Notes under the pieces: generated by a model | Seen by the model: the letters and a program-made list of their open reading frames with translations, nothing else | The model's database searches: none | Told to the model about the DNA's origin: nothing | Origin: a virus | Length of the DNA: 64,000 bases | IMG/VR virus record: IMGVR_UViG_3300031951_000087 | Location: 21,006 to 85,005 of that record | Reading direction: 5' to 3' (one strand) | Translations under genes and position numbers: made by a program | Shown: in pieces, positions 32,697-60,253 of the stretch | How the letters are laid out: each line of letters starts with the position of its first letter | How positions within the stretch are numbered: position 1 is the first letter of the stretch

Positions 32697-33342
32697 ATTT
32701 CCGACAAGGTCCCGTAGAAAACAATTCTTTGAAACCTTTAACAGGTATCAAGAATACATAAGTGAACCCACCACAAGGTTTTTAATTACCATAGATGAGG
32801 ATGACTCAGACATGAACAATGATGAGGTACTGGCAATACTTGAATCATACGATAATGTATCTTTTGTAATTGGTCAAAGTAATTCTAAAATTCACGCAAT
32901 TAACCGTGATATTGATACATCAGAAGATTGGGATATTATCTTATTGGCATCTGATGATATGATACCACAAGTTAAAGGGTTTGATAAAGTTATTAATACT
33001 TTGATGAACGCAAATTACCCTGACACAGATGGAATCCTTTTCTTTAATGATGGATTTAAAGGTCAAGAATTAAACACATTGTGTATTTTGGGTAAGAAAT
33101 ATTATGAAAGATTTAATTACATTTATTATCCTGAATATAAATCAGTTTGGTGTGATAATGAGTTTATGTTAGTCGGAAACTTACTAAGAAAACAAAAGTA
33201 TTTCCCAATGGTTATTATCAAACATGAACACCCTGATTGGGGATATGGTAAACATGACGTAATACACAATAAAAATCATTCAGACTTGTCTTTTGATATG
33301 AATTTATTTAAAGATAGACAATCCAAAAATTTCTACATATGA
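32680..33342 (+). CDS. GT-A-like glycosyltransferase
   Basis: 220 residues from ATG 32680 (MKLLIKFPTRSRRKQFFETF). The N-terminal half has TRFLITIDEDDSDMN and WDIILLASDDMIPQ, both acidic clusters of the kind that bind metal and nucleotide-sugar in GT-A enzymes, and the second half has FFNDGFKG. It resembles small phage glycosyltransferases that act in capsule or virion glycan pathways. It overlaps both neighbours by a few bases. Acceptor unknown. Confidence 0.62.
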   Translation: MKLLIKFPTRSRRKQFFETFNRYQEYISEPTTRFLITIDEDDSDMNNDEVLAILESYDNVSFVIGQSNSKIHAINRDIDTSEDWDIILLASDDMIPQVKGFDKVINTLMNANYPDTDGILFFNDGFKGQELNTLCILGKKYYERFNYIYYPEYKSVWCDNEFMLVGNLLRKQKYFPMVIIKHEHPDWGYGKHDVIHNKNHSDLSFDMNLFKDRQSKNFYI

Positions 33343-33998
33343 AAAAAATCATATCATTTTGTTTGTGGGGTGATAATCCAAAATACACAATCGGAGCGAT
33401 TGAAAACGCCAAATTAGCAAAAACAATATATCCTGATTGGACATGTAGATTTTATGTTGGTACTTCAACACCCGATGAAATTTGGGATGAATTATACGAC
33501 ATGGACAATACCGAAATGATTAATATGGAAATTGATGGTAATTGGTCAGGAATGTTTTGGAGATTTTATCCAGCGTCTGAAAATGACGTAGATGTTTTTA
33601 TTGTCAGAGACACTGATTCAAGATTAAGTCAAAGAGAAAAAGAAGCCGTTGATGAATGGTTATCATCAGATAAAGGATTACATATTATGAGGGACCATCC
33701 TTTTCATAATAGTTTAATTATGGGTGGTATGTGGGGAATGAAAAAAGACACGTTTCCTAAAATGAAGGAACTGATTGACATCTACAAGGGAGGTGATTTT
33801 TGGCAAGTTGACCAAAACTTTTTAAATGAAATGGTTTACCCTTTGTGTAAAAATAATACCATTATACATGACGAATTCATGAATTTTGAAAGTTGGAAAA
33901 AACCATTTCCAAGTGAAAGAAAAGACAAGGAATTTGTTGGTGATGTTTTTGATGAACATAATCAAAGACACCCAGAATATTATACATTTATACCATGA
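33339..33998 (+). CDS. Glycosyltransferase-like protein with DxD
   Basis: 219 residues overlapping its predecessor by 4 bases (ATGA). The N-terminus MKKIISFCLWGDNPKYTIGA and the core VDVFIVRDTDSRLSQRE (Asp91-Thr-Asp93) form a DxD nucleotide-sugar site of GT-A folds, and GMWGMKKDTF follows. Proteins of this pattern are usually annotated as glycosyltransferases in capsular and LPS clusters. It would act at the same step range as its neighbours; specificity cannot be read. Confidence 0.62.
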   Translation: MKKIISFCLWGDNPKYTIGAIENAKLAKTIYPDWTCRFYVGTSTPDEIWDELYDMDNTEMINMEIDGNWSGMFWRFYPASENDVDVFIVRDTDSRLSQREKEAVDEWLSSDKGLHIMRDHPFHNSLIMGGMWGMKKDTFPKMKELIDIYKGGDFWQVDQNFLNEMVYPLCKNNTIIHDEFMNFESWKKPFPSERKDKEFVGDVFDEHNQRHPEYYTFIP

Positions 33999-34855
33999 AA
34001 ATACTAATAATACAAGAAGCCGGAAGAAATGAACCAAACAAAGAATTTAGAGAGGCCAAAAATTTTCATAGGGGATTTCAAAAATTAGGGATTGATAGCG
34101 TCGTATGGGGGTTAAACCATGAAAATTTCAATATCCCTTACAATGAAATATCTAAAGATTGTGATGTTATTTTTTTATTAGAAAATTATGAAACAGGTGG
34201 ATGGGTACCCGATTTATCAAATGAAAAAAAATTAAAATTGTTTTGGTCTATTGATTCTCATTGTGTACCCACATCACATTTTAACACCGCAAAAAACCAT
34301 AATATTGATATTGTACTTTATGCGGTATATAATCACGGAAAATTATTTGGTAGTCGTAAAACAATTTATTTACCTAATGCATATCCAGATGATTTAATTT
34401 ACCCCATTAATGAAATTGAAAAAATTAATGATGTTGGGTTTTGTGGTTCTATTTTAAATCGACAATCACATTTAAATTTATTATCAAAAAATTTTAATTT
34501 TAAAAATGATACTTTTGTTTTGGGACAAAAAATGGTTGAGACTATTAACTCATATAAAATTCATTTTAATAGAAATTTATCTGATGATATTAATTTTAGA
34601 ACGTTTGAGACTTTAGGGTGTAAAACGTTTTTAATAACAAACCCAACACCAGGTATTAATGAATTATTTGAGATTGATAAACATTTAGTTGTTTATAAAA
34701 ATAACGATGAATTAATTGAAAAAATAAAATATTATTTAGATAATGAAAATGAAAGAAAATTGATTGAAAATCAAGGTTATGAATTTGTTAGAGAAAACCA
34801 CACTTATTTTCAAAGAGCTAAACAAATTGTAAAAATAATAGAAGAAAATGTTTGA
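33995..34855 (+). CDS. CgeB-like glycosyltransferase
   Basis: 286 residues. An N-terminal Rossmann-like domain (MKILIIQEAGRNEPNKEFRE, then DVIFLLENYE) is followed by a C-terminal domain VGFCGSILNRQSHLNLLS, HFNRNLSDDINFRTFETLGC and LDNENERKLIENQGYEFVR. This is the order seen in the CgeB/YkvP-type family, with the conserved Arg-Phe-Glu segment in the donor site. Its likely role is sugar transfer to a surface glycan or protein. It overlaps the previous and next genes by 4 and 8 bases. AT content is higher here than in the virion genes. Confidence 0.68.
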   Translation: MKILIIQEAGRNEPNKEFREAKNFHRGFQKLGIDSVVWGLNHENFNIPYNEISKDCDVIFLLENYETGGWVPDLSNEKKLKLFWSIDSHCVPTSHFNTAKNHNIDIVLYAVYNHGKLFGSRKTIYLPNAYPDDLIYPINEIEKINDVGFCGSILNRQSHLNLLSKNFNFKNDTFVLGQKMVETINSYKIHFNRNLSDDINFRTFETLGCKTFLITNPTPGINELFEIDKHLVVYKNNDELIEKIKYYLDNENERKLIENQGYEFVRENHTYFQRAKQIVKIIEENV

Positions 34856-35627
34856 TAGAATTGTCACAAGTACTAATGAAAATAGTACTTATTTAGGATT
34901 TTGGGAGCTTCAAATTTTATCCCATAAAAAGTTTTTCCCTGAAAAAAAAATAACAATAGCTTTTTTAACCGATAGAACATATGAAGATGAATTAGTTAAA
35001 GAAATGATTAGTTATGATATTGACGTACAGATATATAAACCAATTAATGGTATTCCCGAAGGAAACCATGCTAAAATATTAAGATACCTATGTGCATCAC
35101 AATATGATAATGAAATTTGTTGTATTACTGATATGGATACAATACCATTGCAAAAAGAATATTTAACCAATCAAACTAATCTTAGAGAACCAAATAAATT
35201 ATTATGTATTGGTGCCGAGGTTTATAAAAACACACCCCACTATGGTAAATTTCCCGCACACCACATGACAGCTGAAGGAAAAATATTTAAACAATTATTT
35301 AACCCTAATAATTTAAATTATGAAGACAGTGTTAAAGAAATTTCAAATTTTAAAGTTTTTGATTCAAAAGAAAGCCTTGTTAATTCAAGGGATGGTTTTT
35401 CGGATGAATCATTAATTAGAGTTTTAATAGAAAAAAATAGTGTCCCTGTTCAACATATAGTAAGAAATGTTGACATATATAATGATTGGATTGATAGAAG
35501 TTGGTGGAATATTGATATTGAAAAATTAAAAAATTTAAAATATATAGAGTCAAATTTATTAAGACCTTATGATGAAAATAAACAACAAATTGAACCAATT
35601 TTACAATTTTTAAAAGATGAATCATAA
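34848..35627 (+). CDS. GT-A type glycosyltransferase (DMD motif)
   Basis: 259 residues. IAFLTDRTYEDE near residue 40 and CCITDMDTIPL (Asp95-Met-Asp97) form the donor-binding core of a retaining GT8-like or capsular glycosyltransferase. HMTAEGKIFKQ and DGFSDESLI follow. It overlaps the CgeB-like gene at its start and the methyltransferase at its end. Probably part of the same glycan assembly pathway. Confidence 0.6.
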   Translation: MFDRIVTSTNENSTYLGFWELQILSHKKFFPEKKITIAFLTDRTYEDELVKEMISYDIDVQIYKPINGIPEGNHAKILRYLCASQYDNEICCITDMDTIPLQKEYLTNQTNLREPNKLLCIGAEVYKNTPHYGKFPAHHMTAEGKIFKQLFNPNNLNYEDSVKEISNFKVFDSKESLVNSRDGFSDESLIRVLIEKNSVPVQHIVRNVDIYNDWIDRSWWNIDIEKLKNLKYIESNLLRPYDENKQQIEPILQFLKDES

Positions 35628-36207
35628 AAAAGCGGTTTTAGAAGGATTGGAAACTGGTAAACAGTTACCACATAATGATAGATTAACACAAGTATTTAAT
35701 AACCTACTTAATATTGAAGATGGTTATTGCGTTGAAATAGGTGCGGGATACGGTGAAACTACTGTTAAATTATTAAACTCAGTTAAAAACTATAAAATAA
35801 TCGTTGTTGACCCATTTGAAGATGGTTGGGGTAGTATGCCTGAGTCCTACGGAAAACCATATCCATTTTTTCTTTTTCAAAATGCAATTAAACAATTTTC
35901 AGATAAAGTAATATTAATTAAAAAATCATCTGATGATTCATCGGTTATTGATGAATTATTAAAATACAAACCAATAATTTTTTCATTTGTTGACGGATTA
36001 CAATATACCGATAATGTATTGTACGATTTAAATATGATGGATAAATTAAATTGTAAAGTAATATGTGTTGACGATTATAATAGATTAACTAACATTAGTC
36101 AGGTCCCTTTAGCAATTGAGGAATTTATAAAAAATAATAAAAATTATGATGTTGTTTATCAAAACGACAATAAAGAAATTTATTTAGTTAGAAATGAAAA
36201 AAATTAA
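35617..36207 (+). CDS. Class I SAM-dependent methyltransferase
   Basis: 196 residues. CVEIGAGYGETTVKLL (motif I, residues 38-53) with Gly-x-Gly and IIVVDPFEDGW (motif II acidic residue) identify a Rossmann methyltransferase. KPIIFSFVDGLQY and VICVDDYNR resemble the FkbM/Methyltransf_24 type, which methylates sugars. In this position it would methylate a glycan made by the flanking transferases. Overlaps neighbours by 11 and 14 bases. Confidence 0.72.
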   Translation: MNHKKAVLEGLETGKQLPHNDRLTQVFNNLLNIEDGYCVEIGAGYGETTVKLLNSVKNYKIIVVDPFEDGWGSMPESYGKPYPFFLFQNAIKQFSDKVILIKKSSDDSSVIDELLKYKPIIFSFVDGLQYTDNVLYDLNMMDKLNCKVICVDDYNRLTNISQVPLAIEEFIKNNKNYDVVYQNDNKEIYLVRNEKN

Positions 36208-36760
36208 ATATTTTAGATTTGATGATGTTTGTATTAATGCTGATATAGATTTGATAAACAAAATGACAACATTTATGTTTGAAAAATTTCCAGACTGTGT
36301 TGTATTGTACGGAGTATCACCATTAGTTCACGACATGAGTTATGAAAAGAATGATGTTGAGAAACAAAGAATTTTTCCAAGAATATTAAACGCGTTATCG
36401 GATTATAAAAACTTCTATAAGGTTGACATGGCTGGATTGCCTGAGTTTCACCCAAAAGCAACATTAGCAGCACATGGATTAATACATGTTGACCATAGAT
36501 TATTACCAAAGTCAGTACAAGAAATTAGTATATTAATTAGTGCTAGTTTAGTTAAATCAAAAATATTTATTCCACCATTTAATAAATGGAATAAAGATAC
36601 TGAAGAAATATGTGATGAACATGGAATTGAATTAGTTAAATTTGAAGACGGTTGGTTGAGTATGGAACATAACAATTTTTCTGATATTCATAATAAATGG
36701 TATCTTCATGCTAGAGAATTTGAGTATGAAGATTTTGTTAAATGGTTTGGAAATGTATAA
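36194..36760 (+). CDS. Polysaccharide deacetylase-like protein
   Basis: 188 residues. KYFRFDDVCINAD (Asp10, Asp11) near the N-terminus, LAAHGLIHVDHR (His94, His98) in the middle and KIFIPPFNKWN (about 123-133) match motif 1 (Asp-Asp), motif 2 (His-x-x-x-His) and motif 3 (R/P-x-P-x) of carbohydrate esterase 4 or DUF2334-type deacetylases. It could remove acetyl groups from a sugar polymer. It is shorter than most CE4 domains. The end overlaps the next gene. Confidence 0.62.
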   Translation: MKKIKYFRFDDVCINADIDLINKMTTFMFEKFPDCVVLYGVSPLVHDMSYEKNDVEKQRIFPRILNALSDYKNFYKVDMAGLPEFHPKATLAAHGLIHVDHRLLPKSVQEISILISASLVKSKIFIPPFNKWNKDTEEICDEHGIELVKFEDGWLSMEHNNFSDIHNKWYLHAREFEYEDFVKWFGNV

Positions 36761-37535
36761 AGTAGGTATTGTAGGTATGGGATTTGTGGGGAAAGCTGTG
36801 TTTCACGGTTTTTCTTTATTTTGTGAAACTAAAGGGTATGATATTGACCCTAAAAAAAGTACACATACTCTTGATGATGTTTTAAATTCTGATTTTGTTT
36901 TTGTTTGTTTGCCAACGCCAGAATCTTCAAATGGCTCAGCAGATTTAACCTACATACATGATTTTTTTAATTCGTTAGAAAATAAAAATCCAATTTTTAT
37001 TTTAAAATCAACAGTACCAATAGGGACAACATCTAATATTGAATCGTTGTATTCGGTTAAAATTGTTCATAGTCCAGAATTTTTATCCGCCAGAACCGCA
37101 GACATTGATTTTATAACATCTAATCGTGTTATTGTTGGTTCTAACAATTTAGAAATTTCATTAAAAGTTAACGAATTATTCACACAAAGATTTCCAGGTA
37201 TTAATACTGTCACAACAACCCCAAATGAATCAGAATTAATTAAGTATTTTTTAAATTGTTTTTTCTCAACAAAAATAACATTCTTTAATGAAATGAGATT
37301 ATTATCCGATAAACTTAATTTAAGTTGGGATAGTATTATGAATGGTGTATTAAGTGATGGTAGAATTGAAAAAATGCACACGGATGTTCCTGGACATGAC
37401 GGTAAATTTGGATTTGGTGGTGCTTGTTTTCCTAAAGACACAAAAGCCCTTAGAGACGTGTTTATTCAAAACCAAATTCAACCAATTGTTTTAGATTCAG
37501 TTATTAAACAAAATAGTATTATTAGACATGATTGA
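36753..37535 (+). CDS. UDP-glucose/GDP-mannose dehydrogenase-like, C-terminal domain missing
   Basis: 260 residues from ATG 36753 (MYKVGIVGMGFVGKAV), in the overlap ATGTATAA. Gly-x-Gly-xx-Gly (8-13) binds NAD. FVCLPTPES, LKSTVPIGTT, ELIKYFLN (Lys164, Asn168) and FGGACFPKDTKAL (catalytic Cys225) are the conserved steps of UDP-sugar 6-dehydrogenases. Complete enzymes are about 430-450 residues and need a C-terminal nucleotide-binding domain, which is absent here: the chain stops shortly after the Cys motif. It may be a minimal version, pair with a host subunit, or be decaying. Confidence 0.72.
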   Translation: MYKVGIVGMGFVGKAVFHGFSLFCETKGYDIDPKKSTHTLDDVLNSDFVFVCLPTPESSNGSADLTYIHDFFNSLENKNPIFILKSTVPIGTTSNIESLYSVKIVHSPEFLSARTADIDFITSNRVIVGSNNLEISLKVNELFTQRFPGINTVTTTPNESELIKYFLNCFFSTKITFFNEMRLLSDKLNLSWDSIMNGVLSDGRIEKMHTDVPGHDGKFGFGGACFPKDTKALRDVFIQNQIQPIVLDSVIKQNSIIRHD

Positions 37536-38007
37536 ATTAAATGATATAAATTGGGGCGGTTCAGGAATTGAAAAATGTTTATACGATTTTTTAATTAATA
37601 AATTTCCTAAAGGAACTAAAATGTTAGAATTTGGTGGAGGTAAAGTATCAACAAATGTTTTTTCTAATTACTTTAATTTAACAACAGTTGAAGAAGATTT
37701 AGAATGGTTAAACATTTTTAAAAATAGGTACATTTATGCACCAATAAAAAATGATTGGTATGACAATGAAATATTATCTAAAGAATTAGATAATGATTAT
37801 CAAGTTATTTTTGTTGATGGTCCATTAGGCGAAGGAAATCGTGTTGGATTATTAAATAATTTAAATTTATTTAATGAAAATATTACTTGGGTTTTTCATG
37901 ATACATACAGAGTATCTGAAAAAAATTTAGCGACTGAATTCTCTGAAAAAACAAACAAAAAAATAACGTTTTATTCTGAGTGTGATTATTGGGCAATTGT
38001 AGAATAA
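37528..38007 (+). CDS. Small methyltransferase-like protein
   Basis: 159 residues, overlapping the dehydrogenase end by 8 bases. KMLEFGGGKVSTN (33-45) resembles a motif I, VIFVDGPLGEGNR a later acidic/Gly motif, and ITWVFHDTYR a terminal strand with His-Asp. The overall order fits a reduced class I methyltransferase as found in sugar clusters. It lacks the usual C-terminal extensions. Confidence 0.55.
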   Translation: MIELNDINWGGSGIEKCLYDFLINKFPKGTKMLEFGGGKVSTNVFSNYFNLTTVEEDLEWLNIFKNRYIYAPIKNDWYDNEILSKELDNDYQVIFVDGPLGEGNRVGLLNNLNLFNENITWVFHDTYRVSEKNLATEFSEKTNKKITFYSECDYWAIVE

Positions 38008-38008
38008 T

Positions 38009-38575
38009 ATGAAAATATCTATACACCAACCTAATTTTATGCCTTGGTTACCATTTTTCAAAAAAATTGAAATTGTTGATAAATTTGTTATTTTACAAAA
38101 TTGCCAATTTGAAAAAAACAATTTTCAAAATAGATTTAATATTGAAGACAAGTGGTATACCTTAAGTACCAATAGAGGATTAGAACCAATTATAAATAAA
38201 AAATATGTTAATCATGTTAAAGATTGGTTAAAAATTAAAAACAATCTTAAAGACTATAAAGAAGTTTTAGACATGTTTGATGATTGTATTACTGAAAATT
38301 TATCAGAAACAAATTCTAAAATTATAAAAAAAGTTTGTAATATGTTAGATATTAAAACTGAAATTGTGTTTGATTACCCGACTGATTTAAAATCAACGGA
38401 AAGGTTACTTGATATCTGTGTTAAACATGGCGCAACTGAATATGTTGCGGGAAGTAGTGGAAAAAAATACATGGACATTAAATTATTTGAAGATAGAAAC
38501 ATTAATGTAATTTTTCAGTCAACAAATAAAGAAGATATGATACCAATAGTTGAGGTATTAAAAAAACAACTTTAA
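38009..38575 (+). CDS. WbqC-like family protein
   Basis: 188 residues. MKISIHQPNFMPWLPFFKKI is the hallmark N-terminus of the WbqC family (I-x-Q-P-x-F-x-PW), followed by FVILQNCQFEKNN and QNRFNI, and the C-terminal AGSSGKKYMDI. WbqC-like proteins occur in O-antigen and capsule clusters and are thought to act on amino-sugar residues; the reaction is not well settled. It closes the first glycan block, one base after the methyltransferase gene. Confidence 0.82.
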   Translation: MKISIHQPNFMPWLPFFKKIEIVDKFVILQNCQFEKNNFQNRFNIEDKWYTLSTNRGLEPIINKKYVNHVKDWLKIKNNLKDYKEVLDMFDDCITENLSETNSKIIKKVCNMLDIKTEIVFDYPTDLKSTERLLDICVKHGATEYVAGSSGKKYMDIKLFEDRNINVIFQSTNKEDMIPIVEVLKKQL

Positions 38576-41260: not shown

Positions 41261-42070
41261 ATGGAAAATAAAGTAGATATTTCAGTTATATTACCAATCG
41301 CATCATCATTTGGAAAAGATTTTGACATTCTTTTTGAAAAAGCGATTGACTCAATAAAAAAACAACAAGTTTCAATTAATGAACTTATTATTGTTCATTC
41401 GGATGAAGAATCATTATGTACTAAATTAAATTCATTTGATTTTGGTGATTTAAATGTTGTTAAAGTATTAAACACATCAGAACATACTGATTACGCATCA
41501 CAAGTTAATCTTGGTGTCAAAAACGCATCATCAACATGGGTTAGTTTCTTTGAACACGATGATGAATATTCGTTTATATGGTTTAAAAATGTGAATGATT
41601 ATATTAAATACCACCCTGAGTGTGATGGATTTTTACCAATCGTTGTTGATGTTGATGAAACAGATGTATTCGCGGGATACACAAATGAAGCAACATTTGC
41701 GGCTTCATTCAACACTGAAATTGGTATTCTAACTAATGAATTGTTAAATCAATATCAAAATTTCCAAACAAGTGGAATGGTTGTTAAAAAATCAATTTTG
41801 GATAATTTTGGTGGTTTTAAAAAATCAATGAAACTAACATTTGTTTATGAATTTTTATTAAGATTGACATATAACTCAGCAAGAATAATGACTATTCCAA
41901 GATTGGGATACAAACATGCTAACATGAGAGAATCATCAATTTTTTGGGGATATAAAAACGGAAAAAATGTTTTGACCGACAACGAGGTTAAGTTTTGGAT
42001 TGATACAGCAAAAAAAGAATATTTTTTTACAAATGACCGTGACATAAAATACGAAGAAACCACTAATTAA
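41261..42070 (+). CDS. GT2-family glycosyltransferase
   Basis: 269 residues. VDISVILPIASSFGKDF is a GT2 first strand, INELIIVHSDEES the second, and STWVSFFEHDDEYS carries the DxD-like HDDE motif, then TSGMVVKKSIL and MKLTFVYEFLLR with the ED-like catalytic region. Last gene of the glycan block; its stop overlaps the sigma factor ATG (TAATG), linking the cassette to the late regulator in one transcript. Confidence 0.75.
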   Translation: MENKVDISVILPIASSFGKDFDILFEKAIDSIKKQQVSINELIIVHSDEESLCTKLNSFDFGDLNVVKVLNTSEHTDYASQVNLGVKNASSTWVSFFEHDDEYSFIWFKNVNDYIKYHPECDGFLPIVVDVDETDVFAGYTNEATFAASFNTEIGILTNELLNQYQNFQTSGMVVKKSILDNFGGFKKSMKLTFVYEFLLRLTYNSARIMTIPRLGYKHANMRESSIFWGYKNGKNVLTDNEVKFWIDTAKKEYFFTNDRDIKYEETTN

Positions 42071-42825
42071 TGATAGTTTCCGAAACAATTCCAAGCGGGA
42101 ACACTGAATCCGCAGACTCAAAACGCAGTAAAAAAATTAAGTCAAATAATTATTTTGACGTAAGAGAAGAGACTGCGGTTGTTATGTTTTTGGAAGCTGA
42201 AACTATGAAAGAAAGAAACGAAATTTATAATGAGTTTCTTAAAAAACCAATAGAAAAAATGGTTTCTTCTATAATTAGAAGATACAAATTATATAGAAAG
42301 GACATGTCATTTGATGAAATATTAAATGACACCCATTCTTTTTTAATTACAAAATCAGACAAGTTCAAACCAGATAAGAACAAAAAAGCATATTCTTATT
42401 TTGGTACGATTTGTAAAAATTATTTGATGGGTCAAATTATAAAAGACCAAAAGGATACCAATAGAAAAGTATCTTATGAAGATATTTCATCTAGTTTAGA
42501 AGAAAGACCTGATTTGGTGTATTACATTGAAGATGACATAATTGAAACTGATAAAATAATAATAGATTATATCGCTCAACTAAAAACGTTCATTGACGTA
42601 TCATCATTAAACGAAAATGAGGTTAAATTAGGTTATGCTTTGTTAGAATTATTTGAAAATTATGATTCAATTTTTGTTGGTAATGATAACAAAAAATTTA
42701 ACAAAAATTTGGTTTTAATGTCAATTCGTGAAATGACAAACCTTTCAACAAAAGAAATTAGATTAAGTATGAAAAAATACAAAAAACTATATTTTGATTT
42801 TGTTAAAAGTATTGATAACAGATAA
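42070..42825 (+). CDS. gp55: gp55-like late sigma factor
   Basis: 251 residues. Residues about 35-130 contain a sigma-70 region 2 pattern, with the FDEILNDTHSFLITKSDKFK segment followed by KAYSYFGTICKNYLMGQII, as in T4 gp55 and relatives. Region 2 binds the core polymerase clamp and opens the -10 element. A short C-terminal helix cluster (KEIRLSMKKYKKLYFDFVKS) may include a sliding clamp contact. T4 gp55 recognises TATAAATA; here the repeated upstream element is TATTTATN. It starts in the stop of the last glycosyltransferase. Confidence 0.65.
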   Translation: MIVSETIPSGNTESADSKRSKKIKSNNYFDVREETAVVMFLEAETMKERNEIYNEFLKKPIEKMVSSIIRRYKLYRKDMSFDEILNDTHSFLITKSDKFKPDKNKKAYSYFGTICKNYLMGQIIKDQKDTNRKVSYEDISSSLEERPDLVYYIEDDIIETDKIIIDYIAQLKTFIDVSSLNENEVKLGYALLELFENYDSIFVGNDNKKFNKNLVLMSIREMTNLSTKEIRLSMKKYKKLYFDFVKSIDNR

Positions 42826-50608: not shown

Positions 50609-52405
50609 TTATCTCAATTCTCTTAAGTCAAATGTTCTAACACCATCAACTGTGATTTTACCGTAGAAACGGTTGTTCACCATCTTCTTAGCGTATCTTG
50701 TCATGATACCTTTGATAGGTGTGAAGTTGAATGGGTTATACATTGTTGGAGTCAATTGTAATGGTACGTATGGTGCGTACACATAACCTGTGTCTAACAA
50801 TGAGTTACCTTTATGACCAATCAACACTGTGTTTGGTGGAAAATAAGGGTCTCTGTAAACTTGGTATCTACCAGCCAAAGTTCCAACTCTTTCAATACCC
50901 ATGTTATATTGGTCTTGCTCAGGAGCTGCGTTTGATACGTGGAAGTATTCCAAATCATCAAAGATTGCACTGATTTCAGAAGAAACAACAATCCAGTTAG
51001 CTCCACCTCTCAATGTTGATTTGTGGATTTGAGCTGAAAGTTGGTTGATTGCTGTAATCAATGTTTGGTTCCAATCTTTTTGTGTGTATTGTGTTAATGG
51101 ATTTGCAGTTGTACCTCTCTTCCAACCGTTGTAATCCCATCTCAAAGTCCATGCTGCACCTTTTCTCAAATCTCTCAAGATTTCTCTATCAATTTCTGCC
51201 GCAACTTGCTCAGACAATAAAGCTGTTAATTCAGCTTCAGCGTCAATGTTGTGGAATGCTGCAACGTCTTGTGCTAATTCAGGAGACCATTGTGCTCTCA
51301 ATTTTCTTTCAGTTACAGAAACTGTTACTGATTCCAAATCAAAAGAAACTTCACCGATTTCATCTTCAAATTCTAAGTTTTGATAAACTCTATATGTACA
51401 TTTGAATGCTTGATTATATGCGGTTGTTACAGATGTTGTAACACCTGAGTAACCATCTAAAGAATCAGCACCGATTGAACAAGGAACTTGAGTATCCACC
51501 TCTAAGTAAATAATACCAAGAGCATCACAGATATTGTCATAAGAACCTCCATTACCTGTACTTGGGAATGATGTTGTTGCTTGTGAACCATATTGTACAA
51601 TACCTTTACCGTATTTTTGAGTTACAACTCTAAATAATTGGTTACCAGACAATCCTGAAAAACCATTTGAAGTAGCATCTGTAATTGGTGTTACAGATAA
51701 GCTAGACAAAAACTCTTCAGAATCCATTTCGTTACCGTTAGGACCAATTAATTTACCAGCACCAGCTGTGTTAAATCCTGATAAAGCAATAATAACTTTT
51801 CTGTATTCACCAGCACTGTAACCACTTTGGATTAATTCTGAACCACTCCAAACTTGTGTAGACGCTGTGTATGTTTCAGCACTAAACTTACCTTTAGAAT
51901 AGTCAAATAACCCTGGAGGGTCTAATGATGCTTCGTTACCTTCGTAGAATCTGTCATACAAATTCTTATCGTTTGCGCCATAACCAGCATTTGTTGATGA
52001 TGGTCCATTAGGTGCTCCAAAAGGTGCGAAGTGTGTACCACCTTCAGTTGGGTCTTGACCCATGTCATAACCCTGAATTTTAGGTACGAAGTAGAACAAT
52101 TTACCGATAGGTAAGTTCATAGCTTGTACAGATACGATGTCGTTAGCCAACAATTTAGAGAAAACTCTTCTTACGATTGGAAATACAACCGTTTCGAAAG
52201 AACCGTCTGATGCTGTGCTAGCAGCTTCGTTAATTAAGTGAGATGCTTGGTTTTCATAAAGTTGAGCGATGTTTTCTTTAACATGTCCTCTCAAACCTTC
52301 CAAGAATCCTAATTTGTCCCATTTGTTAATAGTATCTTCTTTGATAACTTTAAGGTGCTTAAGACCGATGTTACCAACAAGACCTGATTCTAATAATGCT
52401 CCCAT
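50609..52405 (-). CDS. gp23: Major capsid protein gp23
   Basis: 598 residues. The N-terminus MGALLESGLVGNIGLKHLKV, then WDKLGFLEGLRGHVKENIAQ and FPIVRRVFSKLLANDIVSVQ with PxGKLFY, is the gp23 family. The later FEDEIGEVSFDLESVTVS and the RLRAQWSPELAQDVAAFHNI segment are conserved core parts. Hexamers make the shell. The prohead protease gp21 cuts gp23 after (L/I)-x-E; LINE|A at residues 57-61 fits that rule (T4 cuts after residue 65). It is downstream of gp22, closed by a strong hairpin. The gap before it has no exact TATTTATN copy. Confidence 0.95.
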   Translation of the reverse strand: MGALLESGLVGNIGLKHLKVIKEDTINKWDKLGFLEGLRGHVKENIAQLYENQASHLINEAASTASDGSFETVVFPIVRRVFSKLLANDIVSVQAMNLPIGKLFYFVPKIQGYDMGQDPTEGGTHFAPFGAPNGPSSTNAGYGANDKNLYDRFYEGNEASLDPPGLFDYSKGKFSAETYTASTQVWSGSELIQSGYSAGEYRKVIIALSGFNTAGAGKLIGPNGNEMDSEEFLSSLSVTPITDATSNGFSGLSGNQLFRVVTQKYGKGIVQYGSQATTSFPSTGNGGSYDNICDALGIIYLEVDTQVPCSIGADSLDGYSGVTTSVTTAYNQAFKCTYRVYQNLEFEDEIGEVSFDLESVTVSVTERKLRAQWSPELAQDVAAFHNIDAEAELTALLSEQVAAEIDREILRDLRKGAAWTLRWDYNGWKRGTTANPLTQYTQKDWNQTLITAINQLSAQIHKSTLRGGANWIVVSSEISAIFDDLEYFHVSNAAPEQDQYNMGIERVGTLAGRYQVYRDPYFPPNTVLIGHKGNSLLDTGYVYAPYVPLQLTPTMYNPFNFTPIKGIMTRYAKKMVNNRFYGKITVDGVRTFDLRELR

Positions 52406-54055: not shown

Positions 54056-54778
54056 TTATCTATATCCCAAAAAATCGTTCAATTTTCCCATTAAGTCAAG
54101 CGATTTACCTAAACCACCATCAATTCTTCCATCTTCTTTTGATTTTTTTTCTTCTTCAAGATTTTCATCGTATTTGTGACGGTCATCCTTATTAAGGAAT
54201 AGATAAGCGCCGGGTGTAGATGGATTCATAACCAAGTCAAAACAAATCATTTCATAATCATTTTGAACTTCATTGTGTTCTCCCTTTTTAGCTAAAGAAC
54301 CTACACCACGTGAAGATACCCCCATCGTAACACCTTGTCTCATTAAGTTTGCCGCTACATCACCCTTAGATGATACAATACCTCTTTCATGGAAACCTGG
54401 TGTTGTTAATAACCTTAGTTTACCCATAAGAACGTTATCATCCCACCATATATCATCAATAATGTGTGATACTCTGTCTAAATCAATCAAAGATGATTCA
54501 GGGTGATTAAGTTCTGATGTTGCCAAACCTTTAGATATTGTTTGTTTATATTTTTCAGCTTCTCTTTTAAGAATATTTTCAGGATATACACGACCATTTC
54601 TATTAGGTGTACCATACTTTTGTAGAGTTGCGTAAAATACAAATGGTTTAGAGTGGTCTAATTGTGATTTTTGTTCATTAACTAAATCAGTATCTACGGC
54701 ATTTTTCATAGATATATGACCTGCATCATATTCTATCAATATTCCTTTACCTATTTCATTCGGTTTAAGTATCTTCAT
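54056..54778 (-). CDS. gp21: Prohead protease gp21
   Basis: 240 residues. NGRVYP (61-66), ELNHPES (His92) and GVSSRGVGSL (Ser155/156) are the signature motifs of the gp21-type (family U9/S80-like) serine protease. It cuts scaffold gp22 and capsid gp23 during head maturation. T4 gp21 is about 212 residues. The C-terminus is charged and likely removed by self-cleavage. It lies upstream of the scaffold gp22 in T4 order. The start ATG 54778 has the TATTTATT element 15 bases upstream. Confidence 0.9.
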   Translation of the reverse strand: MKILKPNEIGKGILIEYDAGHISMKNAVDTDLVNEQKSQLDHSKPFVFYATLQKYGTPNRNGRVYPENILKREAEKYKQTISKGLATSELNHPESSLIDLDRVSHIIDDIWWDDNVLMGKLRLLTTPGFHERGIVSSKGDVAANLMRQGVTMGVSSRGVGSLAKKGEHNEVQNDYEMICFDLVMNPSTPGAYLFLNKDDRHKYDENLEEEKKSKEDGRIDGGLGKSLDLMGKLNDFLGYR

Positions 54779-54801: not shown

Positions 54802-55260
54802 TTAGAATATCTCAAAGTTTTTGTTTTTCAACTTGTTTTTAGAATATTGAATGGTAAAATACTTTGATTTCTTTAAAACATTGTCGTGAACTTCTTTTAA
54901 TACGTGATTTAATTCTGTTGATATATTTTCAGATTTGAACTCAATATTTTCTTTTGTAAAGAATGTAATTTCAAGATTTAAAAAACTTGCTTTATCTACT
55001 TTTATCCCACTTGTTCTTAAATCTAAATCAACAATAAAATGTTCTTTGAATAATGATTTATTGTAAACTTCTAAAACTTTATGTTTAATAGTTCGAGATA
55101 TTGTCCCAACTACTCTTTCCCAATTATCCCTTTCTTGTGTGGGTGTTACCCATGTTTGTAATACTAAATAAATTGATTTTAATTCTGTCGCATCTACACT
55201 ACCGTAATAGCACTTAGCATCTTGGAATAAATCCAATTTTGATGTTTTTCCTTTTTTCAT
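54802..55260 (-). CDS. Hypothetical head-region protein
   Basis: 152 residues. Basic N-terminus (MKKGKTSKLDLFQDAKCYYG) and a series of helices and strands (WERVVGTISRTIKHKVLEVY), ending in a Lys-rich tail. It sits between the portal region and gp21. No motif or family recognised; a head assembly or DNA-packaging accessory is possible. Confidence 0.5.
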   Translation of the reverse strand: MKKGKTSKLDLFQDAKCYYGSVDATELKSIYLVLQTWVTPTQERDNWERVVGTISRTIKHKVLEVYNKSLFKEHFIVDLDLRTSGIKVDKASFLNLEITFFTKENIEFKSENISTELNHVLKEVHDNVLKKSKYFTIQYSKNKLKNKNFEIF

Positions 55261-55343: not shown

Positions 55344-55351
55344 TATTTATA
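55344..55351 (+). promoter_or_regulatory. TATTTATA element before bS21 gene
   Basis: The plus strand reads TGTATATTTATATCAATAAC, 21 bases before ATG 55373, in a 112-base divergent gap. Confidence 0.55.
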
Positions 55352-55372: not shown

Positions 55373-55567
55373 ATGATAAAAATAATTTTAGAAAAAGGTG
55401 AAAGTTTGGAAAAAGCTTTAAAACGTTACAAACACAAAGTTATCAAAACAAAACAAATTGAACAACTTCGTGCAAAACAAGAGTATGTTAAAAAAACAAC
55501 TTTGAAAAGGGAACAAATAAAAAAAGCAATATACAAACAACAAATCGCCCAAAGTAACTTTGACTAA
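55373..55567 (+). CDS. rpsU: Phage-encoded ribosomal protein bS21
   Basis: 64 residues. MIKIILEKGESLEKALKRYK, then KTKQIEQLRAKQEYVKKT and a Lys-rich end with KKAIYKQ, follow the bS21 family, being closest in pattern to the Bacteroidota form (KRYKRK, LRxRQxxxKP, KAxYxQ). Tyr54 corresponds to the tyrosine that, in Flavobacterium ribosomes, is reported to help hold the anti-Shine-Dalgarno end of 16S rRNA. bS21 is the small-subunit protein that most influences initiation. A phage copy could replace the host protein and tune ribosomes to phage mRNA. It is co-directional with a small membrane protein on a short plus-strand unit inside the head operon. Confidence 0.85.
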   Translation: MIKIILEKGESLEKALKRYKHKVIKTKQIEQLRAKQEYVKKTTLKREQIKKAIYKQQIAQSNFD

Positions 55568-55575
55568 TATTTATT
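55568..55575 (+). promoter_or_regulatory. TATTTATT element before membrane protein
   Basis: The plus strand reads CTAATATTTATTGGTAAC. It overlaps the TTG at 55574, arguing for the later ATG 55595, which it precedes by 19 bases. Confidence 0.5.
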
Positions 55576-55594: not shown

Positions 55595-55834
55595 ATGAAA
55601 AACTTTATTATGAATTTACTAGGAAACGGTTCTGACGTTTCATCAAAAAGATTCGCATCTTTATTCACTTTATTAAACGTAATTATCTTAGCTTATGTTG
55701 CAACATTTACATCTAAAGATGGTGTAACACCTGAGTATATGTTTGATGCACTTTGTTTAATTGCTGGTGGTGGATTGGGTCTTACAGTTGTTGAGAAGAT
55801 TTTCTCAAAAGGTTCAGACAAAAAAGCTGAATAA
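55595..55834 (+). CDS. Small two-helix membrane protein, holin candidate
   Basis: 79 residues from ATG 55595. TM1 about 21-39 (FASLFTLLNVIILAYVATF), then a polar loop, TM2 about 50-67 (FDALCLIAGGGLGLTVVEKI) and a Lys-rich C-terminus. Length, two helices and a basic tail fit class II holins, which open the cell membrane at lysis. No lysin is seen next to it, so this remains a suggestion. It follows the bS21 gene by 27 bases and ends at a bidirectional terminator. Confidence 0.55.
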   Translation: MKNFIMNLLGNGSDVSSKRFASLFTLLNVIILAYVATFTSKDGVTPEYMFDALCLIAGGGLGLTVVEKIFSKGSDKKAE

Positions 55835-56604: not shown

Positions 56605-58446
56605 TTAAGTATTTAATAATTCGTTTAATTTGGTTTCAATTTCATTAATTGATGTTCTACCTTTAGATAAATCAATTTCATCTCTACCACTAATTAAATC
56701 ATCTTCCAAAATTAAATTTAAATCGTTCATTTTACTTTCAGGTGTTACTTCACCTCCAGCCGGTGGTTCAGGGGATTCAGGAATATCAGGTGCTCCACCC
56801 ATATCTTCAGGTCCTCCACCTATTCCACCTAAACTACCCATATCACCACTTGGTGGTGCTCCACCCATATCGTCACCCTCAGCAGGTGGCGTGGCTGTTT
56901 CACCGGGTTTCTTACCATACAATCTATCAATATTATCAAAAATACCTGTATGAATAATTACCTCAGGAGTTTTTTGTAATTCAGCCCCAACTGCTTTTTC
57001 AATTCTTTGTTGTTGGATATCCAATTTAATTTCCTCATCAGAGAATCCAAGAATGTGTTTTTTTGCCCATGTTGTTGATACCGCTTGGATACCGTTACCT
57101 GGGTCAGAAACCGCATCTTTATAAAGAAGTATTTTTTCTTTCCAATTCTCAATCTTTAATAAATCAGCTTGAGTTGATGGGTTAGTTAATCCTAATGTGA
57201 AGTTTGTTAATTCATCTTCAAAACCAAGAATAAACAAGTGAATAATTGCAATCTTATTTAATTCCTGAATCATTGATTTTTGAATTCTATTAATTGTTCT
57301 CGCAAAACGAATATCTTGTAATGCCAAGTTCTTACCATCACCAACAACTTCTTCAAAACCTAAGAACGCTTTTGGTACACGAAGAGCGGTTAATAATTTC
57401 TTTTGGATATATTCAATATCGGCAATTTCAGAAAGGTTCTGTGCTCCCGCCAATGTTTCAATAGGACTTGTTTGTGCTGGGTCACGAACAGGAATGAAAT
57501 AATCTTGGTCAACCGCCATTTGGTTCATTCTTAAGTCAACGTTACCTGTTTTTGAGTCAACAACTTGGTCTCTCTTAAACTTATTAGCAATTCTTTGAAT
57601 GTATGGTTCAACGTCCTTATCATCCATGTTACCAACATAAACTTTGAATACACGTCTTTCAGGTGCTCTTGATGTTCTATACACCAACATTGCATCTTCT
57701 GATAATAACAACTGTTTCCAAGTACGTCTTGCTTTTTCCAACATAGCAGTACCATAAGGAAGTTTTCTATCATCACCTAACAAACGGAAGTGTGCGACCT
57801 CCCAAGTATTCATTTCCATATCTTTTACTTTCCATACGAATTTCAAAGATTTTGCATCCTCAGTTGTATTATGTGATGGTTTGATTTTCATACCACGTTC
57901 CAAACGTTCAATTTCAATGTTTGGAAGTTGTTGACAACCCATAATACCTTTTTCAGAATCTAATTTTAAGTAAACAAAGTTATCACCATACTTACAAGTG
58001 TTTCTTGTCCACATTGGTAAGTTGGTGTTAATATCTAATCTGTTATTAAATAAATCCGCTAATATTCCCTTAATTCTATTTGATTCTGAATATATTTGTA
58101 GAATATATCCATCTTCATTTGTTGTTGTTGATTCTTCAGCGTAGATATCTAAAGCTGCGGAAATTTCAGGAGTGTATTCCATTGATTCATAATCATAATA
58201 TGATGCCAATCTTGTTGGTTCATAATAAATTGCCTGAGAATATAAATTATTTTCTACTTTACCCCATTGTTGACCAAGATACATTGTCTGTTGAGCTTGG
58301 AGTTTTTCCTTCTCAAATTCTTGCTTATCTGTGGTTTTTAATAATTCCTTCTTATCAAATTTATAAACTGGAGGCTGTTGACCCAAAGTTGAGTCGGGAC
58401 CAAAGACTTTGGTAAGTCGTTGCCATATGGTGAAATTGTCTGCCAT
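56605..58446 (-). CDS. gp20: Portal vertex protein gp20
   Basis: 613 residues. YYEPTRLASYYDYESMEYTP and AALDIYAEESTTTNEDG, then MWTRNTCKYGDNFVYLKL, KPSHNTTEDA, GTAMLEKARRTWKQLLLSED and RAPERRVFKVYVGNMDDKDV, are conserved gp20 blocks. The dodecamer makes the head's DNA entry/exit ring. T4 gp20 is 524 residues; the extra length is a Gly/Pro-rich C-terminal region (about 520-575). The gene follows gp17 as in T4 order 17-20 with sheath and tube genes moved away. Upstream the gap has a TATATTTAG variant with an AGAGGG just before ATG. Confidence 0.93.
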   Translation of the reverse strand: MADNFTIWQRLTKVFGPDSTLGQQPPVYKFDKKELLKTTDKQEFEKEKLQAQQTMYLGQQWGKVENNLYSQAIYYEPTRLASYYDYESMEYTPEISAALDIYAEESTTTNEDGYILQIYSESNRIKGILADLFNNRLDINTNLPMWTRNTCKYGDNFVYLKLDSEKGIMGCQQLPNIEIERLERGMKIKPSHNTTEDAKSLKFVWKVKDMEMNTWEVAHFRLLGDDRKLPYGTAMLEKARRTWKQLLLSEDAMLVYRTSRAPERRVFKVYVGNMDDKDVEPYIQRIANKFKRDQVVDSKTGNVDLRMNQMAVDQDYFIPVRDPAQTSPIETLAGAQNLSEIADIEYIQKKLLTALRVPKAFLGFEEVVGDGKNLALQDIRFARTINRIQKSMIQELNKIAIIHLFILGFEDELTNFTLGLTNPSTQADLLKIENWKEKILLYKDAVSDPGNGIQAVSTTWAKKHILGFSDEEIKLDIQQQRIEKAVGAELQKTPEVIIHTGIFDNIDRLYGKKPGETATPPAEGDDMGGAPPSGDMGSLGGIGGGPEDMGGAPDIPESPEPPAGGEVTPESKMNDLNLILEDDLISGRDEIDLSKGRTSINEIETKLNELLNT

Positions 58447-58483: not shown

Positions 58484-60253
58484 TTATCTTCTACCGAATA
58501 ACCATAAATACTGTTCATAATCCTTTTTTGTTGGATTTGATGAAAAAGCATCGTTATATCCTGTTGGTGATAAAACAGGCATTCCCGGATTAAATTGTGT
58601 TATTTCTCTATTTGTACTGTCGTCAGCTACGGTCCAAGAGCTTAACATAGCCTTTGTTTGTTCATTAACCTTTTCAAGTTGATTATATGCGTTTTGTCCA
58701 ACATATAAAGCCATTGACATTGACATAATTAAATCATCATGTTGCCCTTTCATGTGGTCAGGTCGTCCGTTTATATAAACATACGTATTCATCTCACCAA
58801 GTAATCTAGCAGAATACAATTTAAATCCATGTCTTAACGCTTCCTCAAACGCCGCAATAATTTGAACCCTTTTACCATTAAAGTTTATACCCGGTATTTT
58901 TTCATTAGACTTAACAGTTGACTCCCAAATATTACCATAATTAATTCCATCAACATATAAGTTTTTATAACCCAATTCTTGTAATTTTCTTGATGTTGAA
59001 ACTCCCATACCACCCGTAATATCAATAACAATAAACGCATCGTAGTAATTTCCCCACTTATAAGCAATTTCAGCCGCAACATCAGGAGGAAGTTTTCCAA
59101 CATACTCGGCAACTTGTTCCCTTTCGTCAAAATCGATAACTTGGAATGATGTAAAATCCTCAGAGTCACCCCTTGATACGTCCATACCCATAATGTATCT
59201 GTGACCAACAACTGGTTCTTTCCAAATCCATAATTGATTTTGAACCATCTTTGATTCAGGTTGACGAACCATTTCAGTTCTAATCTTATCAGTTAATTGT
59301 GCATCGAATACGTTATCTCCCGAACCTAAAAAGTTACATTCCAACTCCTGAGAAATTTTTCTCTTATCAAATTTTAACTTTTTGGCCATAGTTTCAAACC
59401 AACCAGAACTTACTTTGTAACCATCATCCATTAATTTTTTGAAATCACCAAAATTTCTTTGACTTGTTGGTACACCATCAAAACTAATAATCTCAGGGTT
59501 GGGGTATTCATCACGATTTAAAAAATAGTGAATTAAATCTTTGACTTTAATAAAGTATAAATCTTTAGTATATCTTGGGTCTCTCCACCAATACATTTCA
59601 GTAACTTTAAAACTATTCATTCCTTTAATAGCCTGTTCATAGATACTGTAATAGATTGCATCATATCCGTTTGGTGTTGAAATTACAATAACTTTACCAC
59701 CTGTTGATAACGATGCCATACAAGCTGCCCAGAAATCGTCATTAGCTTCGATGTACGCAGCCTCGTCAAATATCAATACGGTAGGGGTATAACCACGAAG
59801 TGCATCAGGTGAAGTTGCAACCGCTTTGACTTCACACCCATTTGATAATTTAAAGTGTCTTTGTGAATTCTTTTCAGATGAAAATGATACCCCCATCCAA
59901 TTTGGCCACTGTTCCGTAAACCCTCTAATTTTATTAGCAAATTCTACCGCAGTATCTAATTTGTTGGCAATTACAAGAATTTTTTCAGGTTTTTGTTTGT
60001 TTGCAAAAACTACTTTTTTAGACGCCCAAGCGGCAGTAACTGTTGATACACCGGCTTGACGATATTTTAAGGCAATGTTTTCCTCGTAGTTATCATAATC
60101 TTCTACTAAGGTTTCTTGGTCAGGAAATAAATCCAACGGAACGTATTTTGACTGTGTGTTGTCATACGTTTGTAAATAATTTCTTAAAGCGTATGGAGTG
60201 TTTTTGACACACTTAGCATATTCTATAAGGGCTTGTTCTTTTGTGATACTCAT
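58484..60253 (-). CDS. gp17: Large terminase subunit gp17
   Basis: 589 residues. The ATPase half has ALKYRQAGVSTVTAAW (Walker A type, Arg65-Thr71), VLIFDEAAYIEAND (Walker B, Asp163-Glu164) and VIVISTPNGYD (coupling motif). The nuclease half has GMDVSRGDSEDF (first Asp), DAFIVIDITGGMG and HDDLIMSMSMAL (last acidic cluster). gp17 is the packaging motor that cuts concatemers and pumps DNA through the portal. T4 gp17 is 610 residues. The small subunit gp16 is not evident here. A TATTTATA element lies 4 bases before ATG 60253, with AAGGG between. Confidence 0.95.
   Translation of the reverse strand: MSITKEQALIEYAKCVKNTPYALRNYLQTYDNTQSKYVPLDLFPDQETLVEDYDNYEENIALKYRQAGVSTVTAAWASKKVVFANKQKPEKILVIANKLDTAVEFANKIRGFTEQWPNWMGVSFSSEKNSQRHFKLSNGCEVKAVATSPDALRGYTPTVLIFDEAAYIEANDDFWAACMASLSTGGKVIVISTPNGYDAIYYSIYEQAIKGMNSFKVTEMYWWRDPRYTKDLYFIKVKDLIHYFLNRDEYPNPEIISFDGVPTSQRNFGDFKKLMDDGYKVSSGWFETMAKKLKFDKRKISQELECNFLGSGDNVFDAQLTDKIRTEMVRQPESKMVQNQLWIWKEPVVGHRYIMGMDVSRGDSEDFTSFQVIDFDEREQVAEYVGKLPPDVAAEIAYKWGNYYDAFIVIDITGGMGVSTSRKLQELGYKNLYVDGINYGNIWESTVKSNEKIPGINFNGKRVQIIAAFEEALRHGFKLYSARLLGEMNTYVYINGRPDHMKGQHDDLIMSMSMALYVGQNAYNQLEKVNEQTKAMLSSWTVADDSTNREITQFNPGMPVLSPTGYNDAFSSNPTKKDYEQYLWLFGRR

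What the first reader, a model, noticed from the sequence alone, without database searches (positions are those of the whole stretch)
55373..55567. Phage bS21 of Bacteroidota type
The 64-residue protein follows bS21 throughout, including Tyr54, the residue reported to contact the 16S 3' end in Bacteroidota. In that phylum bS21 helps hide the anti-Shine-Dalgarno sequence. Most genes here lack a Shine-Dalgarno but carry the TATTTATN element, so replacing host bS21 might retune initiation toward phage mRNAs.
Basis: partly seen in the sequence, partly recalled or inferred. Interest (0 to 1): 0.72.

Follow-up and report, generated by a model that had tools for sequence, protein, structure and literature searches.

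The report
Phage-borne ribosomal protein bS21
A virus of Bacteroidota bacteria carries its own copy of a small ribosomal protein, a kind already described in print; the DNA motif thought to go with it is most likely an ordinary switch for reading the virus's late genes, not a ribosome signal.

Summary
55373-55567 (+) encodes a full-length bS21: Pfam PF01165 38.3 bits against a cut-off of 27, TIGR00030 32.8 against 28.95, best solved match Flavobacterium johnsoniae bS21. Tyr54 aligns; 57 of 60 distinct phage proteins have Tyr there. This is not new. Chen et al. 2022 (PMC9723584) described Bacteroidetes phages with bS21 on the opposite strand among terminase, portal, protease and capsid genes, aromatic residue 54, late expression, and the same substitution hypothesis.

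What I add: (1) Phage bS21 genes lack the extended Shine-Dalgarno of many host rpsU genes: 0 of 19 and 0 of 32 distinct upstreams (the two sets share 4), against 40 of 43 and 5 of 27 in two host sets. The phage copy looks free of host bS21 autoregulation. (2) TATTTATN is not a translation element. In the window it precedes 20 of 33 leading genes and 0 of 31 tightly packed ones. Relatives without bS21 have it too. It behaves like a T4-type late promoter, often 11-13 nt before ATG, which predicts leaderless late mRNAs. The proposed link between bS21 and TATTTATN mRNAs is not supported. Entry into ribosomes is untested.

The parts
55373..55567 (+). phage bS21 gene (64 aa, Tyr54)
   Evidence: PF01165 38.3 bits, cut-off 27; TIGR00030; 7jil best PDB match
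55344..55350 (+). TATTTAT, predicted late-promoter element of bS21 (first T at -29 from ATG)
   Evidence: sequence; statistics; same element within 50 nt upstream in 68 of 70 close phage bS21 loci but only 16 of 32 distinct upstreams of a wider set
55595..55834 (+). small protein downstream of bS21 (79 aa; looks membrane-spanning by eye), own TATTTAT at 55568-55574
   Evidence: no family match; homologue only in G004 among the five other records compared
54802..55260 (-). 152-aa protein of unknown function, divergent from bS21; candidate for Chen's opposite-strand conserved neighbour (not shown)
   Evidence: homologues of 49-91% identity in the five other phage records; no family match
54056..54778 (-). 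prohead (head maturation) protease
   Evidence: phrog_207, E 1.2e-42
50609..52405 (-). major capsid protein, T4 type
   Evidence: phrog_138, E 7.3e-68
56605..58446 (-). portal protein
   Evidence: phrog_213, E 3.2e-64
58484..60253 (-). large terminase subunit
   Evidence: phrog_2, E 2e-39
42070..42825 (+). candidate late sigma factor (gp55-like)
   Evidence: phrog_234 'late sigma transcription factor' E 0.013, 5.5e-4 in relative L384; T4 gp55 among top PDB profile matches, E 0.12; fold search returns mostly sigma factors

Best explanation
It is a genuine, conserved phage copy of bS21. It is probably transcribed late from a phage promoter (TATTTAT at -29) and translated like any SD-less Bacteroidota mRNA. 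It probably enters host 30S subunits in place of, or in addition to, host bS21. It keeps the C-terminal part with Tyr54 that covers the 16S 3' tail, so ribosomes stay blind to Shine-Dalgarno sequences and fit for SD-less phage mRNAs. Because the phage gene lacks the extended SD through which host bS21 controls its own synthesis, it can be made when host rpsU is switched off, and by filling empty ribosomes it should keep host rpsU off. Shown here: identity, conservation, synteny, selection, absence of SD, promoter-like element. Inferred: late timing in this phage, incorporation, displacement of host bS21, effect on rpsU. The changed residues around positions 21-30 and 41 may alter mRNA choice; no evidence here says how.
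For: Family scores. Purifying selection. Tyr54 column 57 Y, 2 H, 1 F of 60 distinct phage proteins. 36 of 38 terminase loci with enough flank carry bS21 on the opposite strand. Phage upstreams with SD pairing of -9 kcal/mol or better: 0 of 19 and 0 of 32 (28 of these new), against 40 of 43 in the host set. Phage bS21 proteins are one side of a branch against 68 bacterial ones, support 90/92, not starred. Literature: F. johnsoniae ribosomes lacking bS21 or its C-terminus start faster on rpsU and worse on SD-less mRNAs, and rpsU is autoregulated through its extended SD (PMC9976891, abstract and passages); pelagiphage bS21 enters E. coli ribosomes (PMC6375957, passages); related phage bS21 is transcribed with structural genes (PMC9723584).
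Against: No experiment on this protein. In the Flavobacteriales sample only 5 of 27 distinct host upstreams had a strong SD, so the true host may not use the rpsU autoregulation at all; the host is unknown. In the wider phage set only 16 of 32 bS21 upstreams have TATTTAT, and several have host-type TAnnTTTG instead, so late expression may not be universal. E. coli ribosomes with pelagiphage bS21 were about 5% active, which fits poisoning as well as substitution. Close relatives without detectable bS21 exist (G089, L292, L299), so it is dispensable in some of them.
Confidence: 0.6

Rival explanations
1. One reading: phage bS21 retunes initiation toward mRNAs that carry TATTTATN as a translation element.
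For: bS21 and TATTTAT occur in the same genomes; TATTTAT precedes bS21 itself.
Against: TATTTAT is in front of 132 of 295 leading genes against 15.5 expected from shuffles, but 3 of 175 tight genes, at several distances from ATG. Relatives without bS21 have it too: G089 86 of 272 leading, 1 of 159 tight; immuto 26 of 96 and 1 of 69.
Confidence: 0.05
2. Simple dosage: phage bS21 only tops up a loosely bound, limiting protein when late translation is heavy, with no change of mRNA choice.
For: Tyr54 and the conserved core are kept; phage mRNAs are SD-less like host ones; lack of bS21 harms SD-less initiation (PMC9976891).
Against: Residues at 14, 21, 23, 24, 27, 28, 30 and 41 differ consistently from 26 distinct Flavobacteriales bS21, in line with Chen's divergent positions; pure top-up would not need that.
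Confidence: 0.25
3. Host shut-off: ribosomes with phage bS21 are poor at host mRNAs or inactive without another phage factor.
For: E. coli ribosomes with pelagiphage bS21 had about 5% activity in vitro (PMC6375957).
Against: Heterologous pair; no partner factor identified here.
Confidence: 0.12
4. The protein is packaged in virions and acts at the start of infection (suggested in PMC9723584).
For: Gene lies among head genes and is probably late.
Against: No direct evidence; some phage bS21 genes have host-type promoter boxes instead.
Confidence: 0.08

Closest known systems
bS21-encoding Bacteroidetes phages, clades a-e (Chen et al. 2022, PMC9723584)
   Same: bS21 on the strand opposite to terminase, portal, protease and capsid genes; Tyr54; divergence at positions 21, 23, 28; G+C 32.0% (theirs 31.0-33.7%); bS21-carrying relatives of 308-321 kb.
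   Different: Their sequences were not held, so exact identity was not tested; the word promoter does not occur in their main text, and the SD of the phage gene is not discussed in the parts I read.
Flavobacterium johnsoniae bS21 / rpsU (PDB 7jil; McNutt et al. 2023, PMC9976891)
   Same: Same length, family and Tyr54; best PDB match.
   Different: Phage gene has no extended SD; residues 21-30 and 41 differ from Flavobacteriales bS21.
Pelagiphage HTVC008M bS21 (Mizuno et al. 2019, PMC6375957)
   Same: Phage bS21; shown to enter E. coli ribosomes.
   Different: Alphaproteobacterial type, different host.
T4 late promoter TATAAATA with sigma gp55 (PMC1524935, passage)
   Same: Single short AT box ahead of genes, in the matching position if starts lie about 12 nt downstream; candidate gp55-like sigma present.
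   Different: TATTTAT(A) instead of TATAAATA; sigma match is weak in sequence; many sites 11-13 nt before ATG.

Membership tests
bS21 (PF01165 / TIGR00030) | Score above curated cut-offs over the full domain | tested here: met
   38.3 > 27 and 32.8 > 28.95 bits
bS21 (PF01165 / TIGR00030) | Part of the 30S subunit | not testable with these tools
   needs ribosome proteomics
Bacteroidia-type bS21 | Tyr54 that stacks on A1534 | tested here: met
   Tyr54 aligned to 7jil; the stacking itself was not tested; role from PMC9976891
Bacteroidia rpsU gene | Extended SD ahead of the gene (many Flavobacteriales, Chitinophagales) | tested here: not met
   0 of 19 phage upstreams, this one included, reach -9 kcal/mol
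Chen 2022 bS21 phages | bS21 opposite in strand, within the terminase-portal-protease-capsid region | tested here: met
Chen 2022 bS21 phages | Terminase tree places it in clades a-e | not tested
   their sequences not held
Chen 2022 bS21 phages | Genome of 293-331 kb | tested here: inconclusive
   record is an 85-kb fragment; a 133.8-kb record is 99.97% identical over 85 kb; bS21-carrying relatives of 308, 317 and 321 kb
T4-type late promoter (for TATTTAT) | AT box ahead of transcription-unit starts, not inside operons | tested here: met
   132 of 295 leading vs 3 of 175 tight genes
T4-type late promoter (for TATTTAT) | Consensus TATAAATA | tested here: not met
   the two central A are T
T4-type late promoter (for TATTTAT) | Phage sigma gp55 | tested here: inconclusive
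   weak matches, sigma-like fold

The most novel reading that the evidence does not exclude
The phage copy is an escape from, and a jammer of, the host's bS21 feedback loop. Without an extended SD it is made by normal SD-blind ribosomes. Once it fills bS21-less ribosomes it re-covers the anti-SD and so silences host rpsU, giving one-way replacement of host bS21 on the ribosome pool, just when late mRNAs, many of them predicted to be leaderless or nearly so, dominate.
Probability: 0.25. Interest if true: 0.7.

Novelty: new member of a known kind. Interest (0 to 1): 0.42.

Why it matters
Phage ribosomal proteins are a published puzzle: bS21 is the commonest, and its function in infection is unproven. 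Bacteroidota give the cleanest test because bS21 there controls whether Shine-Dalgarno sequences are read at all. The contrast found here (host rpsU with an extended SD in many species, phage copy never in the sets examined) turns a vague hijack idea into a reporter test. Removing the TATTTATN link prevents a false lead, and the late-promoter reading predicts unusually many leaderless late mRNAs in hosts where only 5.5% of mapped mRNAs are leaderless (F. psychrophilum, PMC9723704, passage).

Tried and rejected
TATTTATN as translation element: rejected. Leaderless spacing as a trait of bS21 phages: rejected, since G089 without bS21 has 41 of 91 sites at -13..-11, like G078 with bS21, 49 of 99. 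All bS21 phages using TATTTAT for bS21: rejected, 16 of 32. All hosts having the extended SD: not upheld, 5 of 27 in the Flavobacteriales sample; that sample is the 30 best-scoring loci of 58 genomes with a match, of 60 searched. L072 as a phage gene in a MAG: left open; its neighbours look bacterial by eye. First structure model of the sigma candidate from 4 sequences was poor (pLDDT 61); the second, from 26, was better (75.7) but pTM only 0.40. No PDB fold match reached E 0.001. A paper search for TATTTAT with promoter and phage gave 4 papers, none about such a promoter by title and abstract start; two searches on late promoters or leaderless phage mRNAs in Bacteroidetes/Bacteroidota likewise by listing only. 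One search for phage-encoded, bS21, autoregulation and Shine-Dalgarno gave two papers, PMC9976891 (passages read) and PMC9578407 (listing only). So any 'not in print' rests on these listings. Jha et al. 2021 (PMC7797042) is not held; nothing from it was seen. Dropped rows: locus L208 out of the residue comparison, L026 (cut off) out of protein counts, L075 and L238 (no ATG found) out of upstream counts.

Limits: genes were called by a simple longest-ATG script with greedy overlap removal; start sites may be wrong. The phage records are related, so counts are not independent. The spacing test (32 of 138 at -12/-11, p 7.5e-17) assumes uniform placement.

Full report
What is there. The 64-codon ORF 55373-55567 (+) is a complete bS21 gene. 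It passes the curated cut-offs of Pfam PF01165 (38.3 bits, cut-off 27) and NCBIfam TIGR00030 (32.8, cut-off 28.95). PHROGs gives its S21 family at E 0.0004. The best solved match is the F. johnsoniae protein 7jil at 46.9 bits, collinear over residues 2-60, with Tyr54 aligned. The window is bases 21006-85005 of an 85,005-base IMG/VR virus record. A 133,752-base record is the same phage, 99.97% identical over all 85 kb.

Context. Around the gene, on the other strand, lie terminase, portal, head protease and major capsid genes of T4 type. In the viral collection 70 loci encode relatives of the protein. Of 80 terminase loci, 38 had at least 5.5 kb downstream of the terminase, and 36 of these carry bS21 there, on the opposite strand; L292 and L299 do not. 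In six close relatives pN/pS was 0.09-0.30 in all 15 pairs, so the gene is kept as a protein.

What is already known. Chen et al. 2022 (PMC9723584; I read parts 1-3 of 6 and searched the main text) described five clades of freshwater Bacteroidetes phages with this arrangement, an aromatic residue at 54 in all of them, divergence from host bS21 at residues 21, 23, 25 and 28, late transcription, and the proposal that the phage protein replaces the host's and favours phage transcripts. Mizuno et al. 2019 (PMC6375957, passages) showed that a pelagiphage bS21 enters E. coli ribosomes, which then had about 5% activity. McNutt et al. 2023 (PMC9976891, abstract and passages) showed that F. johnsoniae bS21 is autoregulated through an extended SD and discuss phage bS21. 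So the finding is a member of a described kind and its interpretation is largely in print.

Phage versus host bS21. In a tree of 97 distinct proteins (65 columns, so weak) the 29 phage proteins are one side of a branch, support 90/92, not starred. Sixty distinct phage proteins from two searches have Tyr (57), His (2) or Phe (1) at column 54. Against 26 distinct Flavobacteriales proteins, the 29 phage proteins of the first search differ consistently at positions 14 (K for R), 21 (mostly Y/H/F for R), 23 (V for F), 24 (mostly I for D), 27 (K/R for G), 28 (Q in all), 30 (mostly acidic for basic) and 41 (mostly K for P).

The Shine-Dalgarno contrast. I took the 16S tail from Flavobacteriales genomes and computed duplex energies for the 24 nt before each start. 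Phage bS21: 0 of 19 distinct upstreams at -9 kcal/mol or below, median -0.2; wider set 0 of 32, of which 28 were new. Bacterial bS21 found with the same query, mostly Chitinophagaceae or unclassified Bacteroidota by record title: 40 of 43, median -12.9. A Flavobacteriales sample (30 loci, 27 distinct upstreams): only 5 of 27, median -2.3. The last number goes against a universal host feature; McNutt et al. report about 80% of Flavobacteriales under their criteria, and my sample holds many small genomes. The phage gene is thus built like other phage genes (SD-less) and not like the autoregulated host gene. For hosts that use the loop this predicts escape from it. That step is inference.

TATTTATN. 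In the window it occurs within 60 nt upstream of 20 of 64 genes: 20 of 33 leading genes (divergent, or gap of 9 nt or more) and 0 of 31 tight genes. In six related records it precedes 132 of 295 leading genes against 15.5 expected from dinucleotide shuffles, and 3 of 175 tight genes, and it is the most enriched 7-mer. It is strand-specific: its reverse complement is found before 38 of the same 295 (summed). Distances to ATG cluster at -11/-12 (32 of 138 sites) and -20 to -22 (37 of 138). In sites at -19 to -24, positions 11-13 after the first T are A in 91-96%. The F. johnsoniae sigma-A box lies at -12 to -5 (PMC6847099, passage) and the T4 late box at -13 to -6 (PMC1524935, passage). Put in that register, transcription would start about 12 nt after the first T, so the element would lie outside the mRNA and the -11/-12 class would be leaderless.

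Control for a link with bS21. A 309-kb relative in which no bS21 was found (G089; terminase 66% identical) has TATTTAT before 86 of 272 leading and 1 of 159 tight genes, with 41 of 91 sites at -13..-11. Relatives with bS21: G078 97 of 248 and 4 of 146, 49 of 99 sites; G091 93 of 238 and 3 of 152, 33 of 103 sites. Cultured Flavobacterium phage immuto, with no bS21 match, has 26 of 96 and 1 of 69 in the three stretches fetched (130 of 160 kb), but only 3 of 26 sites at -13..-11. So neither the element nor the leaderless spacing depends on bS21. For bS21 itself, TATTTAT is within 50 nt upstream in 68 of 70 close loci but in 16 of 32 distinct upstreams of the wider set, where some have host-type TAnnTTTG boxes.

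A candidate reader of the promoter. The 251-aa protein at 42070-42825 (+) matches the PHROG of late sigma factors weakly (E 0.013; 5.5e-4 for relative L384, 0.28 for L308 and 0.5 for immuto). Profile searches of the PDB list T4 gp55 first (E 0.12) or second (E 0.12), never significantly. An AlphaFold model from 26 sequences (pLDDT 75.7, pTM 0.40) retrieves mostly sigma factors from the PDB (best E 0.01) and many among viral models (one unnamed match at E 2.7e-4). Immuto has a homologue (E 6.5e-16). I read it as a gp55-like late sigma, probable but not shown.

Conclusion. The mechanism most likely is substitution or topping-up on host 30S with the anti-SD kept covered, under phage control rather than the host's feedback loop. 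The part of the interpretation that ties bS21 to TATTTATN mRNAs is not supported.

Noticed in passing
window-wide, e.g. 55344-55350 (+); relatives G078, G089, G091, immuto: TATTTAT behaves as a T4-type late promoter of Bacteroidota phages; in the three 308-321-kb records about a third to a half of sites lie 11-13 nt before ATG, predicting many leaderless late mRNAs.
   Followed up: partly
42070-42825 (+): Conserved 251-aa protein, likely gp55-like late sigma factor; its immuto homologue (gp118) is annotated only as hypothetical.
   Followed up: partly
upstream of bS21 in many relatives, e.g. L027, L036, L039, L268, L303: Conserved AGTCAAA/TTGTCAAA element at very different distances from the bS21 ATG, sometimes directly before it; role unknown.
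   Followed up: no
relatives G078, G089, G091: Host-type TAnnTTTG boxes are also concentrated before leading genes (38, 54 and 38 sites against 2, 8 and 3 before tight genes), suggesting a second, host-read promoter class.
   Followed up: no
L072, L183, L187 (genome G012): A Flavobacteriaceae MAG holds three bS21 genes; two (L072, L187) are divergent and without SD, and group apart from other bacterial copies.
   Followed up: partly
55595-55834 (+): Small, apparently membrane-spanning protein just downstream of bS21 with its own TATTTAT, with a homologue only in G004 of five other records; holin-like by eye, no family match.
   Followed up: partly
about 32629-38575 (+): Cassette of genes mostly without homologues in the related records, inside a long run of genes without TATTTAT.
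   Followed up: no
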